Origin: Rhabditoides inermis
Lineage: Eukaryota > Nematoda > Chromadorea > Rhabditida > Rhabditidae
Direction of reading: 5' to 3'
DNA: 64,000 nt
Assembly (NCBI GenBank): GCA_963966185.1
Contig: CAWZYM010000470.1
Location: 30,001-94,000, forward strand
Made by a program: the position numbers and the translations under genes. Under the pieces are notes generated by a model. That model searched no databases. It had not been told where the DNA came from and saw only the letters and a list, made by a program, of their open reading frames with translations. Positions 1 through 43,063 of the stretch are shown in pieces. How positions within the stretch are numbered: the stretch's first letter is position 1; each line of letters starts with the position of its first letter.

Positions 1-237
1 AAGAATTCAGCCAAACTGCCCTATTCCGGCACTATTCCTGATGATTCTGTATCCTCTCTTCCGCCCTTCCCTACTGATTGCTCGCCTACTGCCCTTTTGA
101 GCTCTTTCAACGACATGCAGGACTACGTCGCCCAAATATTCGACGAGATCAGTTCCACTCTGGAACAACGACTGTCCGAGTCAGTAGCTGGCCAGTCGAT
201 TTCGCGCCGTCTCCGCAACAGCATGGACGCGGTCTGA
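1..237 (+). CDS. Small unidentified protein, left-arm copy, 5' end cut by window edge
   Basis: Frame 1 is open from the first base to a TGA at 235-237. It encodes the last 78 residues of the 89-residue protein that is complete at 42,794-43,063 on the minus strand. The C-terminal half (SFNDMQDYVAQIFDEI and onward) looks like an amphipathic helix; the N-terminal half is Ser/Pro/Thr rich. No family was recognised. The arrangement of a short acidic helix after a polar N-terminus is loosely like GON7-type KEOPS subunits, but that is only a guess. Confidence 0.5.
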   Translation, partial: KNSAKLPYSGTIPDDSVSSLPPFPTDCSPTALLSSFNDMQDYVAQIFDEISSTLEQRLSESVAGQSISRRLRNSMDAV

Positions 238-263
238 AGATCAAGGTGAACAAATGCCTTTAA

Positions 264-418
264 AGGCCTGTTTATACTCCAGCTTTACTGCGCAGTTTTG
301 ATGCTTGCTGCGCGATTTGCAATTGGCGGGAAATTCGAATAACTGTAGAAAAGATGCAACATTGATTTTGCCGCTTTCCGCAGTACTGCGCGCAGCAAAG
401 CTGTACTATAAACGGGCC
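264..418. mobile_element. TTAA-flanked MITE, left copy
   Basis: This is a 155-bp element with imperfect terminal inverted repeats of about 32 bp (GGCCTGTTTATACTCCAGC at one end; the other end in reverse complement reads GGCCCGTTTATAGTACAGC). TTAA flanks it on both sides (260-263 and 419-422). TTAA target duplication is the hallmark of piggyBac-type transposition. There is no coding capacity. A related fragment lies at 43,555-43,650. Confidence 0.75.
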
Positions 419-553
419 TTAAGCGGAGTGTAGTGATTAGTACGCGCCTGTTCGCATGAGAGCGGGAGTAGTTACAATAAATGTAAGCAGACGATGGATT
501 TCGAAATAGTTGAATGGGATTACGGGCTTAGATTGAAGAGACTGCTACTCTAG

Positions 554-3519
554 GAAGACGAGTCGCGCTCTGGTTGGCTCTGGATCCGTGTCGCTGCCGC
601 CATCGCCGCGCGTCAAGAAAGGAGTGCACAAAGGAACAAAGGTGAACCAAATTGTTGTTTATGGATTTCAATGGTTTCGAAATGTGTTTGTTCTGTTGTT
701 CAGTTTCATCCTTCTGCTGCAGGTGGCAAAGAAGCGCTTTGAGCCCGAGACGCCCGTGAAGAAAGAGAACGACGAGGAGAGGAAGGTGAGTTGTCCATGA
801 GTCCATGTTGTTAAAACATTTTCAGTTTTCTGGTTCGTCCGGCGACATTATTTTGTGGTTTCAATTCAAATTCAAATTCAAATGTTTATTCGGAATCGCA
901 AATATGATTATGACACGTACAACACGAAATCACTCATAAGAACCTAAGATGGTAGTATAGATTTTTTGCGCCGAAGGAAAGATGCAGCTTCACTAATCGG
1001 GCTCTTGCATTCCCATCCATAGAGGGCATTCGTCTTGCGGACAATACCATTGAATCAAGATTGACGTAGATGTTGATAATCGATCGATATCCATCGATAA
1101 TCCAAATCCACGGTTACTCCAGTAACAAACTGACCGCAAGGAACGATATCAACTCCACTGAGTGCCAATAGTGATCCAATCCTCGAGCTAGCGTTGCTGA
1201 CTTCCATGTGGGCTACTCCGCGCGGGCCCAGCGTTTCTCACGGAGGATTCCAGAACTTGCGGCGGCGACGGCCGGAGGTGCGAGAAATGCACCGACCGGC
1301 CGCCGTGACGAAAAGGAAAGGAATTTTGGTTTAGTGGTTTCGATCGTTCTATGTATTGTCGACAAATCTTCTTTTCACATCTGTCAGACCGACTATCCTT
1401 AAGTTTGTGAACAAACGGAGTATCAGGTAAGAAGAGCGCAGGTGTATTCGTATGTAGTGTGGAGTAGTTGGAAGGGAAAGCAGACCACCATTGCTTACTT
1501 GTTGACCCTGTTGTCTTTTCAGGAGAAGTCTCCCACGCCGGACGAGCTTAGCAAGTGGACGTGCGGGCGGTGCGAGGAGGACGAGGACGAGGCTAGTCAT
1601 TCGTATGTGCATTTACATTATCCAGAGAAATGAGGGGAATGTGCAAATAAGGCTATCTTGTCTCAATCTACTATCTGGAAAGGTGAATTGATTCTTGAGA
1701 ATCATCAGAAACAAGCAATAGAGAAGTGCTGGTGTAATTGTTCATCATACCCCGTTTGTAGAGAAGACTATTTTTTTCGACGATTGGGTGGGTATACTGT
1801 ATATTTAATACTGTGTCGTTATTATTTCTTTCTCTTTCTTATCGCGCGGTCGAGTCGAAATGATCTTTCTCCAGTACCCAGTACCCTTGAGCAAGACGGC
1901 GAATATAGCTCATTGAGAACGCTGTCATCCTAGCCCGGGAGTTACTATTGTGGATTATAATGGAGAAGGAAAGGAACACCCGGAGCTCCACTATCGTATA
2001 TAATGGTATCTATTTCTAATGGATTATGAAAGGGAATCGAATGACTATCGACTGATTATCTATACAAAATCGACTTTCGACCTTCGACCCTACCATCCCC
2101 TTTGCTAAATGCATATGCACTTGTTGTATAGTCAGGATATATCGATTCTGGATAAAGGAAAAGTTTTTGTTGATTGATTTATTGATTGATTTATTGATTG
2201 ATTGATTAAACATTAAATACTGTGTCGTGTTTCGTGGTTAGTGTATCATAATCATACTGTAGCTCGGTGGTATACGATACGCATTGCCGTCGTTCATGTC
2301 GCCCTTCAACATCCCCAACGAGGCGTCGATGGCGTTTCTGCCCCCCCCCCCCCACATCATGTGGAAGGGGTTACGGTTTTGGATCACGGACAGTTTGCAA
2401 TCATTTCAGATGCATTTAATTGTATTAGCCAGTTTTGTCATTACGATTTTGTTTCTCCAGGTACGACGAGCTGCTTGCGTTCCCCGAGTACGCGAGTGAG
2501 CCGACCGTCTACCTCGCCCGTGCGCAACCTGATCGTGGCTATGTGGTGCATCAACCCATATGTGAGTCATAAATATGGTTATGACACGTATTCGTATAAT
2601 GCGAAATCACGAAAGGGGATTTGCAGTGGAAGTGGTACCATTTAATCTTCTCACTTTTGTGTTAGGAGGTGTCGGTCGTTTTAGGCGTTCTGTTTAATGT
2701 TTGTGAATGTATGTATCCCAGGAGTACCTTCTTCCGTCGACGGTGCTGGACCACGTGATTGTGCGTGGGCTGGTGCGCGTGTGGTATGCAGGCGAGACGA
2801 AGCGCGTCTACGACTATCTCAACAGGTATGATTGTTGCATTTCTTTTTGTTTTGTATGACTGTATTGCCTTGTCAGTTTGTGTCAACTTCACAGTATTTA
2901 TCAGGAATCGGCATAGCTTTGATAGGTTGACGCCGGGACTGGTGGAATACAGTTACAGTTTACCAGTCGAATGGATGGAAGAGATTGAGTTGATCGGTGT
3001 GCATATTATCGTTATCACGTTCGTGTGCAGTAAGAGCCTCATCAACTACGGCATCCTCGCGCTGCCCAAGGAGCCGGTCAGCAAGCCGCAGGTCAAGGTG
3101 GGCAAGAAGCGAAACACGACGAATGGAGCGCACTTATTGTTGAGAATGAGCATGATGTGTGTCGATGTAGTAAAAGAGACCACGCGATTCTCGTGAATAC
3201 AAGCTAAGCAGTGAATGATTATTTATCTCCACATTGATACGATTCAAATCACGATTATGATAACTTGTGTTTTTGCAATAGCGGAGTGCGAGACGGATGT
3301 CAACATGAGAATCATGGTCCAATCAATCGATATGCTAGTTATGACATACTTTCTTCATTCAGATTTCAGAAGCCTCTCTCGGTGGTGGTGATCGGCGGCG
3401 GCATCTCGGGTCTGTCGGCGGCGCGCCAGCTGCGCTTTACCAGTCGAATGGATGGAAGAGATCACGATTATGAAGTCAAGGTGCTCGAGGCCAAGCAGAA
3501 GGTCGGAGGCAGGATGCAG
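554..3519 (+). pseudogene. KDM1B/LSD2-like histone demethylase, 5' fragment, left copy (frameshifted)
   Basis: Exons read as: about 554-641 and 723-785 (basic, disordered N-terminus, start codon uncertain); 1,523-1,602 (WTCGRCEEDEDEA, like the end of a CW zinc finger); 2,461-2,561 and 2,722-2,825 and 3,031-3,097 (SWIRM: YDELLAFPEYASEPTVYLA, HVIVRGLVRVWYAGETKRV, KSLINYGIL); and 3,370-3,519 (FAD-binding Rossmann motif VVVIGGGISGLSAARQL, then VKVLEAKQKVGGRM). This order matches KDM1B, an FAD-dependent H3K4me1/2 demethylase of the nucleus. The SWIRM exon here is 101 nt with one extra C near 2,518, so the frame breaks; the right-arm exon is 100 nt and in phase. The catalytic amine-oxidase C-terminus is not found inward of here, so the gene is truncated toward the palindrome axis. 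Confidence 0.8.
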
Positions 3520-42477: not shown

Positions 42478-42612
42478 CTAGAGTAGCAGTCTCTTCAATC
42501 TAAGCCCGTAATCCCATTCAACTATTTCGAAATCCATCGTCTGCTTACATTTATTGTAACTACTCCCGCTCTCATGCGAACAGGCGCGTACTAATCACTA
42601 CACTCCGCTTAA

Positions 42613-42767
42613 GGCCCGTTTATAGTACAGCTTTGCTGCGCGCAGTACTGCCGAAAGCGGCAAAATCAATGTTGCATCTTTTCTACAGTTATTCGAATTT
42701 CCCGCCAATTGCAAATCGCGCAGCAAGCATCAAAACTGCGCAGTAAAGCTGGAGTATAAACAGGCCT
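42613..42767. mobile_element. TTAA-flanked MITE, right copy
   Basis: Mirror of 264-418, with the same terminal inverted repeats and flanking TTAA. Confidence 0.75.
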
Positions 42768-42793
42768 TTAAAGGCATTTGTTCACCTTGATCT

Positions 42794-43063
42794 TCAGACC
42801 GCGTCCATGCTGTTGCGGAGACGGCGCGAAATCGACTGGCCAGCTACTGACTCGGACAGTCGTTGTTCCAGAGTGGAACTGATCTCGTCGAATATTTGGG
42901 CGACGTAGTCCTGCATGTCGTTGAAAGAGCTCAAAAGGGCAGTAGGCGAGCAATCAGTAGGGAAGGGCGGAAGAGAGGATACAGAATCATCAGGAATAGT
43001 GCCGGAATAGGGCAGTTTGGCTGAATTCTTGGACGACTTGGCAGATGTTTTGCCTTTTGGCAT
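42794..43063 (-). CDS. Small unidentified protein, 89 residues, right-arm copy
   Basis: A single open frame starts MPKGKTSAKSSKNSAKL and ends SRRLRNSMDAV. The basic, Ser/Lys-rich N-terminus is followed by a polar linker and a C-terminal predicted helix (MQDYVAQIFDEISSTLEQR). No domain was recognised. Its start lies about 60 bp from the first SUCLA2-like exon on the opposite strand. Expression is not shown; conservation of the frame in both arms is the main support. Confidence 0.55.
   Translation of the reverse strand: MPKGKTSAKSSKNSAKLPYSGTIPDDSVSSLPPFPTDCSPTALLSSFNDMQDYVAQIFDEISSTLEQRLSESVAGQSISRRLRNSMDAV

What the first reader, a model, noticed from the sequence alone, without database searches (positions are those of the whole stretch)
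1..43030. Giant compound palindrome with independently evolving arms
About 43 kb fold back around one base. The arms carry the same genes, transposons and satellite, yet each has private insertions (4.3 kb on the left; LINE, foldback, mosaic block and 1.2 kb on the right). This records an old inverted duplication followed by separate change, while intervening segments stay nearly identical. Arm-to-arm gene conversion or recent origin could both explain this. In nematodes such structures could also relate to chromosome ends or programmed DNA elimination, which is speculation.
Basis: partly seen in the sequence, partly recalled or inferred. Interest (0 to 1): 0.85.

Follow-up and report, generated by a model that had tools for sequence, protein, structure and literature searches.

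The report
Nematode mirror-image duplication with diverged arms
A stretch of worm DNA exists twice, back to back in mirror image around a small tandem-repeat array; the two copies are almost identical in sequence but have since gained or lost different pieces, which is a good though probably ordinary example of how inverted duplications arise and decay, provided that it is not two parental copies wrongly joined by the assembly.

Summary
The mirror structure is in the assembled sequence. Six inverted colinear blocks (9,316 aligned bases, 24 substitutions) flank two head-to-head arrays of a 14-bp satellite whose exact 28-mer occurs in no other contig. Private changes are real: a 4.3-kb mobile element (left); a 1.4-kb foldback element at the same (TA)n site (right), with the mosaic block preserving the empty site; a 7.6-kb LINE-plus-mosaic insertion (right). 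The "1.2-kb right insertion" is better read as a left-arm deletion with templated filler. The turning point is not a mirror: the arrays match at their outer ends, not at the axis. The left edge is hidden by 5 kb of N; a 91%-identical exon-like match lies in register beyond it. The genome is a nematode's. Best reading (0.55): a genuine fold-back inverted duplication, arms diverging separately, with a smaller fold-back inside the right arm. Main rival (0.28): two alleles joined by the assembler; divergence looks allelic, and the contig is exactly 95,000 bp long. Mostly unrelated readable flanks and the unmirrored axis speak against this. No telomere repeats in the readable contig and no clear trace of gene conversion. 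Reads are needed.

The parts
1..3755 (+). Outer left arm block; pairs with 43030-39283 on the other strand. Holds an amine-oxidase/NAD(P)-binding-like open stretch (within 3238-3618, +).
   Evidence: 14 substitutions in 3,744 aligned; Pfam PF13450/PF01593
39283..43030 (-). Outer right arm block, mirror of 1-3755
3756..3773 (+). Scar in the left arm: about 1.17 kb missing relative to the right arm; 18-bp filler that, with the preceding TTT, repeats TTTGCAAATG of the downstream flank, as in theta-mediated end joining (BLAST leaves only 3756-3766 unaligned)
   Evidence: sequences; reading inferred; pattern described in PMC5068794 (passages)
38113..39282 (-). Segment only in the right arm (1,170 bp; up to 1,176 depending on how the edge is drawn). 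Positions 171-741 and about 742-916 match a dispersed inverted-repeat element; no match outside 163-916 was listed, so probably the ancestral state, lost from the left arm
   Evidence: 40 of 630 candidates scored, list truncated
3767..4493 (+). Left arm block 2, pairs with 38112-37387
   Evidence: 1 substitution in 726, at the scar edge
37387..38112 (-). Right arm block 2
4494..4540 (+). 47-48 bp present only in the left arm
4541..5611 (+). Left arm block 3, pairs with 37387-36317 without a substitution
   Evidence: 0 in 1,071
36317..37387 (-). Right arm block 3
5612..9905 (+). Private left insertion (4,294 bp) at a (TA)n site; its last ~2.05 kb (7852-9904) is a repeated element with copies at 99% identity on C172, C174 and C123
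   Evidence: no Pfam match in six frames of about 5001-9902
34926..36316 (.). Private right insertion: foldback element, self-complementary end to end (34920-36315, 88% over 1,426 alignment columns), flanked by TA repeats, at the same (TA)n site as the left insertion
9906..11309 (+). Left arm block 4, pairs with 34925-33521; contains a hairpin-like element at 10451-10884
   Evidence: (3 substitutions in 1,403)
33521..34925 (-). Right arm block 4
31609..33520 (+). Mosaic block in the right arm: inverted copies, relative to that arm, of left positions 9904-10873, 5042-5611 and 11339-11705; it brings 5611 and 9904 together (one base between, in the TA run), so it records the empty (TA)n site. A second-order fold-back with a spacer of about 435 bp
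25934..31608 (-). Non-LTR retrotransposon (endonuclease + reverse transcriptase), probably 5'-truncated; best copies 99-100% identical elsewhere in the genome. Genome matches cover up to 31486; 31487-31608 assigned by position
27204..29381 (.). About 2.17-kb element nested in the LINE (splits the reverse transcriptase; coordinates include a 4-bp duplication on both sides)
   Evidence: the C109 copy is uninterrupted
11307..12390 (+). Left arm block 5, pairs with 25933-24850
   Evidence: 1 substitution in 1,084
24850..25933 (-). Right arm block 5
12392..13679 (+). Left arm block 6, pairs with 24769-23466
   Evidence: 5 substitutions in 1,288
23466..24769 (-). Right arm block 6
24770..24849 (-). 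80 bp present only in the right arm (left has one base here)
13680..17336 (+). Left satellite array, unit ATCCTGCACGGCTC, 3,657 bp
17337..23465 (-). Right satellite array, same unit inverted, 6,129 bp; holds an exact 1,400-bp internal repeat at a spacing of 1,526 bp
17328..17344 (.). Axis: GGCTCATC-C-GATGAGCC; beyond about two repeat units the two sides are not mirror images
43195..43529 (+). Two CoA-ligase (PF00549) exon-like stretches just outside the visible mirror edge; a left counterpart, if any, would lie in the N block
   Evidence: no other copy of window 43031-43647 listed (40 of 1,386 candidates scored)
48012..48111 (+). Exon-like stretch pairing in register with contig 24900-25000 (left of the window) at 91%; sequence beyond it does not align

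Best explanation
It is a genuine inverted duplication in a nematode chromosome. A break or stalled replication fork at or beside a 14-bp satellite array folded back and copied (or fused to) its own sister, leaving two arms head to head with the satellite at the apex (inferred). The arms then changed separately (shown, if the assembly is right): single-base changes to 0.26%, satellite turnover, independent mobile-element insertions including two different ones at one (TA)n site, a left-arm deletion repaired with copied flank (inferred polarity), and in the right arm a second, smaller fold-back (the mosaic block) next to a LINE. No function is needed; it is a rearrangement in repeat-rich DNA.
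For: Six colinear inverted blocks, 24 substitutions in 9,316. The readable sequences outside the palindrome differ: contig 1-25000 and 73031-95000, compared with low-complexity filtering at E <= 0.001, share only a direct 319-column match at 78% and an inverted 101-bp match at 91% (the further hits up to E 10 are 14-23 columns long). The right flank 46200-53600 has no other near-identical copy listed apart from short dispersed repeats (such as 253 bp at 97%, 40 of 776 candidates scored). So two alleles do not simply run on. The axis is not mirrored beyond about two units, while the outer array ends are identical for 346 bp; a single fold-back read would be mirrored at the axis. The mosaic block is itself a local inverted copy with a pre-insertion empty site: fold-back copying happened here at least once more. 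For the two arm stretches queried whole, 1-3700 and 11310-13600, no third copy beyond repeats was listed (40 of 1,445 and 40 of 958 candidates scored).
Against: Divergence, short indels, mobile-element presence/absence and array-length difference are also what two alleles look like. The contig is exactly 95,000 bp, and 6 of 40 other contigs sampled have lengths that are multiples of 500, a sign that pieces were cut at round positions, as Hi-C-guided misjoin editing does (recalled). The left edge is hidden by N, and left-flank copy number could not be judged. No reads or depth were available.
Confidence: 0.55

Rival explanations
1. Assembly product: the two arms are the two alleles of one locus. 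The assembler reached the satellite on one haplotype and came back out along the other, producing a false palindrome.
For: 0.26% substitutions plus insertion/deletion differences resemble allelic variation. The 28-mer of the satellite occurs only here, 94 + 164 times in contig and genome alike, so a collapsed array could sit at the turning point. Round contig length. Fold-back reads exist (at most 0.61% of reads in the ONT gDNA or cDNA data of PMC12870357, passages), and false palindromes by erroneous scaffolding are acknowledged in PMC7953838 (passages).
Against: Alleles should stay alike beyond the palindrome, but the readable flanks are unrelated apart from a 91% exon-like match beyond which nothing aligns and one direct 78% match. 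A fold-back read should be mirrored at the axis; it is not.
Confidence: 0.28
2. Long-lived palindrome whose arms are kept alike by arm-to-arm gene conversion, as on mammalian Y chromosomes; only insertions and the outer edge escape.
For: Large structural differences beside long identical runs (0 substitutions in 1,071 bp). An exon-like pair at 91% lies outside, inverted and within 20 bp of register (coordinate sums 103,011 and 103,031; chance about 0.001 per match for random placement, two matches found): possibly an outer, older layer.
Against: Substitution events are spread evenly (p = 0.62 outer vs inner; longest clean run p = 0.067). The mosaic copy differs from the left arm by 3 and the right by 4 substitutions where left and right differ by 1, over about 1,905 bp: too few to show homogenisation. 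The exon belongs to a small family with copies on C185 and C183.
Confidence: 0.13
3. The structure marks a chromosome end or a programmed DNA elimination site of a nematode.
For: Nematode genome; satellite-rich surroundings; at two C. monodelphis sites telomere addition is heterogeneous within regions containing satellite arrays (PMC13370393, passages).
Against: No (TTAGGC)2 or its complement in the readable 90 kb of the contig. Unrelated sequence continues on both sides. Elimination motifs such as those were not searched.
Confidence: 0.03

Closest known systems
Fold-back inverted duplications made by template switching (ODIRA / hairpin model, PMC10766183, passages)
   Same: Inverted copies meeting at a short inverted repeat; a nested second fold-back in the right arm
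   Different: Here the junction lies in a satellite that has since been reshuffled, so the original junction cannot be read; no amplification or selection is known; animal genome instead of yeast culture
Palindromes of mammalian Y chromosomes and those reported in Adineta vaga and Folsomia candida (PMC7953838, passages; size and identity of Y palindromes recalled)
   Same: Tens of kilobases, arms over 99% identical, gene-like sequence in the arms
   Different: Several large private insertions in the arms; satellite at the apex; gene conversion not shown; as there, assembly error must be excluded
Fold-back read artefacts (PMC12870357, passages)
   Same: Sequence followed by its reverse complement at one locus
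   Different: Artefacts are near-perfect copies around the turning point; here private insertions exist and the axis is not mirrored
Polymerase-theta end-joining scars with templated flank insertion (PMC5068794, passages)
   Same: Left 3756-3773: deletion with filler matching the adjacent flank
   Different: Single event inferred from comparing two arms; no genetic test

Membership tests
Large near-identical palindrome / inverted duplication | Two arms in opposite orientation, colinear, high identity | tested here: met
   six blocks, 99.74% by substitutions
Large near-identical palindrome / inverted duplication | Present in single DNA molecules, not created by assembly | not testable with these tools
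   no reads or depth available
Gene-converting palindrome (Y-chromosome type) | Arms more alike than their age, shown by an outgroup | not testable with these tools
   the tool states that G000 has no relatives here
Gene-converting palindrome (Y-chromosome type) | Tracts of complete identity beyond chance | tested here: inconclusive
   longest clean run 2,613 bp, p = 0.067; even spread, p = 0.62
Fold-back read artefact | Near-perfect mirror at and around the turning point | tested here: not met
   mirrored for about two 14-bp units only; best near-axis ungapped identity 0.55 over 300 bp, though indels within units lower this figure
ODIRA / fold-back template switch | Junction at a pre-existing short interrupted inverted repeat (2-14 bp; 40-80 bp spacing preferred) | tested here: inconclusive
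   8-bp inverted repeat with a 1-base centre at the axis; spacing not of the preferred size, array reshuffled since
Allelic fold-back assembly | Homology continues outward at allelic identity on both sides | tested here: not met
   beyond the N block no allelic continuation, only a 91% exon-like match and a 78% direct match; the 5 kb of N itself could not be read
Programmed DNA elimination site | Telomere addition or telomere repeats at the site | tested here: not met
   no (TTAGGC)2 or its complement in the readable contig
Programmed DNA elimination site | Elimination motif; loss from somatic reads | not tested
   no motif search made; no germline/somatic reads
Theta-mediated end-joining scar | Deletion with filler copied from the flank | tested here: met
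   TTTGCAAATG repeated within 30 bp of the junction, about 1.17 kb missing; that it is a loss in the left arm is inferred

The most novel reading that the evidence does not exclude
A locus that folds back repeatedly: the main palindrome, the nested mosaic fold-back in the right arm and the older in-register 91% exon pair outside would be three layers of inverted copying at one site, with the 14-bp satellite born and expanded at the apex, so that palindrome formation seeds a new private satellite.
Probability: 0.13. Interest if true: 0.68.

Novelty: new member of a known kind. Interest (0 to 1): 0.4.

Why it matters
If real, it gives a readable history of a young palindrome in a nematode: an apex satellite whose exact double unit is found nowhere else in the assembly, two different elements at one (TA)n site with the empty site preserved in a third copy, and a second fold-back nested in one arm. 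It would let one measure how palindrome arms diverge or convert outside sex chromosomes (whether this contig is autosomal is not known). If false, it is a useful warning that assemblies can make palindromes that look evolved, because the arms carry allelic insertions.

Tried and rejected
Rejected: simple fold-back read (axis not mirrored, private insertions). A third genomic copy of the arms (none listed beyond repeats for window 1-3700 and 11310-13600). Telomere-linked origin. RNA genes at Rfam gathering score and ARAGORN tRNAs in the window (none). Phage origin (window 1-4500 only, near mode, no match). Gene conversion as a necessary explanation.

Tried without result: species identification by cox1 (PF00115; machine busy). 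LINE homologues (2,382 matches, of which the best 120 were listed; none of those above 44% identity). PDB relatives of one open frame at the right edge (none). Global alignment of the two arrays gives a chain with 85 mismatches, but 300-bp pieces often match several registers almost equally, piece 301-600 matches best far out of register, and piece 1801-2100 has no in-phase counterpart, so inner array homology is not resolved. The search with left-flank L010 was swamped by dispersed repeats (32 of 14,400 candidates scored) and did not list C470 itself, so left-flank copy number is unknown. Pfam frame scans were not complete: 5 of 6 frames of window 1-5000, 4 of 6 of 43031-49032, 3 of 6 of 38101-43502, 4 of 6 of 25934-31610; for 9903-13700 only one frame. 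My checkpoint note says 7 of 40 round-length contigs; the right count is 6 of 40 plus C470 itself, which was not among the 40.
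Full report
What is there. The window is C470:30001-94000 of an unnamed 172.6-Mb, 599-contig assembly; C470 is exactly 95,000 bp. The contig was joined from its fetched pieces in a script. Bases 25001-30000 are N, either a gap or a withheld stretch; I cannot tell which. The window therefore starts right after the N block, and the left limit given in the finding is only the start of the window. The genome is a nematode's: an exact SL1 22-mer occurs 368 times against 0 for reversed controls, and TTAGGC arrays are present (5,584 overlapping matches, controls 0). 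Both motifs are recalled as nematode markers; the species was not identified.

The mirror. Six blocks pair in inverted colinear order. Aligned base by base they give 24 substitutions in 9,316 positions and a set of short indels, many of them single bases in the outer block. Between the arms lie two head-to-head arrays of a 14-bp unit, 3,657 and 6,129 bp long. The exact double unit occurs 94 times forward and 164 times reverse both in the contig and in the whole assembly, so by that measure the satellite exists nowhere else in the assembly.

The axis. At 17336/17337 an 8-bp inverted repeat surrounds one base, but units further out do not mirror each other. The arrays are identical for the first 346 bp counted from their OUTER ends; the outer 300 bp of the left array match right offset 0 better than any of the 5,829 other offsets tried. 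Inward, register is lost: best matches jump between offsets, one of twelve 300-bp pieces has no in-phase counterpart, and the right array carries an exact 1,400-bp repeat of itself at a spacing of 1,526 bp. The arrays share an origin and have turned over since (inferred).

Private changes. At left 5611/9905 a 4,294-bp insertion interrupts a (TA)n run; its last 2.05 kb has copies at 99% identity on other contigs. At the mirror position the right arm has a 1.39-kb foldback element, also in (TA)n. The mosaic block 31609-33520 brings left positions 5611 and 9904 together with one base between, within the TA run, so it preserves the site before either insertion. At left 3756-3773 an 18-bp filler stands where the right arm has about 1.17 kb; with the preceding TTT it repeats TTTGCAAATG of the downstream flank. 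In the right arm, positions 171-741 and about 742-916 of that segment match a dispersed inverted-repeat element, while no match was listed for its ends (40 of 630 candidates scored, list truncated). A left-arm deletion by theta-type end joining is the simplest reading (inferred; pattern from passages of PMC5068794); an insertion in the right arm is not excluded.

The 7.6-kb right insertion. Read from the outside towards the axis it begins with inverted copies of left 10873-9904, 5611-5042 and 11705-11339, then a probably 5'-truncated non-LTR retrotransposon (endonuclease and reverse-transcriptase domains) with a 2.17-kb element nested in it, and rejoins the arm with a 3-bp overlap at 11307-11309. 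The best LINE copies elsewhere are 99-100% identical (39 of 1,264 candidates scored), so the insertion is probably recent. The mosaic is a fold-back inside the fold-back: its first segment is the inverted copy of sequence 435 bp away in the same arm. Over about 1,905 bp it differs from the left arm by 3 and from the right by 4 substitutions, while left and right differ by 1; a C run also differs in length in each of the three. By that coarse measure it is about as old as the arms.

Outside. Contig 1-25000 and 73031-95000, compared with low-complexity filtering at E <= 0.001, share a direct 319-column, 78% match and an inverted 101-bp, 91% match at 24900-25000/78111-78012; nine weaker hits up to E 10 are 14-23 columns long. 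The 91% match lies within 20 bp of the palindrome's register (coordinate sums 103,011 and 103,031), a chance of about 0.001 per match under random placement (arithmetic). It looks by eye like an exon ending at a splice donor; beyond that end nothing aligns, and on its other side lies the N block. It belongs to a small family: of 5 matches, two are on C470, two on C185 (84% and 82%) and one on C183 (71%). It may be an older, outer layer of the palindrome or a local paralogue. The right flank 46200-53600 has no other near-identical copy listed apart from short dispersed repeats (40 of 776 candidates scored). The left flank could not be judged.

Real or assembled? For an artefact: the divergence is what alleles show; the contig length is round, and 6 of 40 other contigs sampled also have lengths divisible by 500 (about 0.08 expected by arithmetic), which suggests cutting at round positions as in Hi-C misjoin editing (recalled; a true palindrome can also confuse that step). 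Fold-back reads exist (passages of PMC12870357), and palindromes from erroneous scaffolding are acknowledged in passages of PMC7953838. Against: no allelic continuation in the readable flanks, no mirrored axis, and a local inverted copy inside one arm, which suggests fold-back copying as a biological process at this locus, unless the mosaic is itself an artefact. I put a genuine duplication at roughly 0.7 in all (0.55 for separate divergence, 0.13 for conversion, 0.03 for an elimination-linked structure) and allelic misjoining at 0.28.

Conversion or recency. The 17 substitution events are not significantly clustered, so recent origin with separate change suffices. Conversion becomes attractive only if the 91% exon pair proves to be part of the same duplication.

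Novelty. Inverted duplications and palindromes are well known (yeast fold-back junctions, PMC10766183, passages; palindromes in parthenogens, PMC7953838, passages). My literature searches (listings, with passages read) were not designed to show that no such nematode locus is in print, and I make no such claim. It is a new member of a known kind, with good anatomical detail.

Noticed in passing
window 54287-57051 and 61236-64000 (contig 84287-87317 and 91236-94269): A direct repeat at 98.6-99.7% identity, 6.95 kb apart, enclosing a 16-bp minisatellite (57029-61231): a second, tandem-type duplication next to the palindrome.
   Followed up: no
C470:1-25000 (L009-L011): The left flank holds many simple-repeat tracts (CT/GA and CA; seen in the open-frame list) and dispersed repeats of the genome; its copy number could not be judged.
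   Followed up: partly
G000 contig lengths: 6 of 40 sampled contigs have lengths that are multiples of 500, besides C470 (95,000): signs of editing at round positions.
   Followed up: partly
C109:1419-11534: SL1 leader sequence repeated at a 1,442-bp period, eight copies, a tandem spliced-leader array (which lists only the first places).
   Followed up: no
C131:10966-15968: A 627-bp piece of the LINE repeated six times every 875 bp at about 100% identity: a tandem array made from a retrotransposon piece.
   Followed up: no
window 43650-46179: A repeat and GA-rich tandem copies related to the left private insertion (about 6260-7739) sit just outside the right mirror edge; the 43650-44300 part is a dispersed repeat at about 91%.
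   Followed up: partly
window 46859-46993: A leucine-aminopeptidase-like stretch (PF00883, 20.4 bits, below the curated cut-off of 25) on the + strand outside the palindrome.
   Followed up: no
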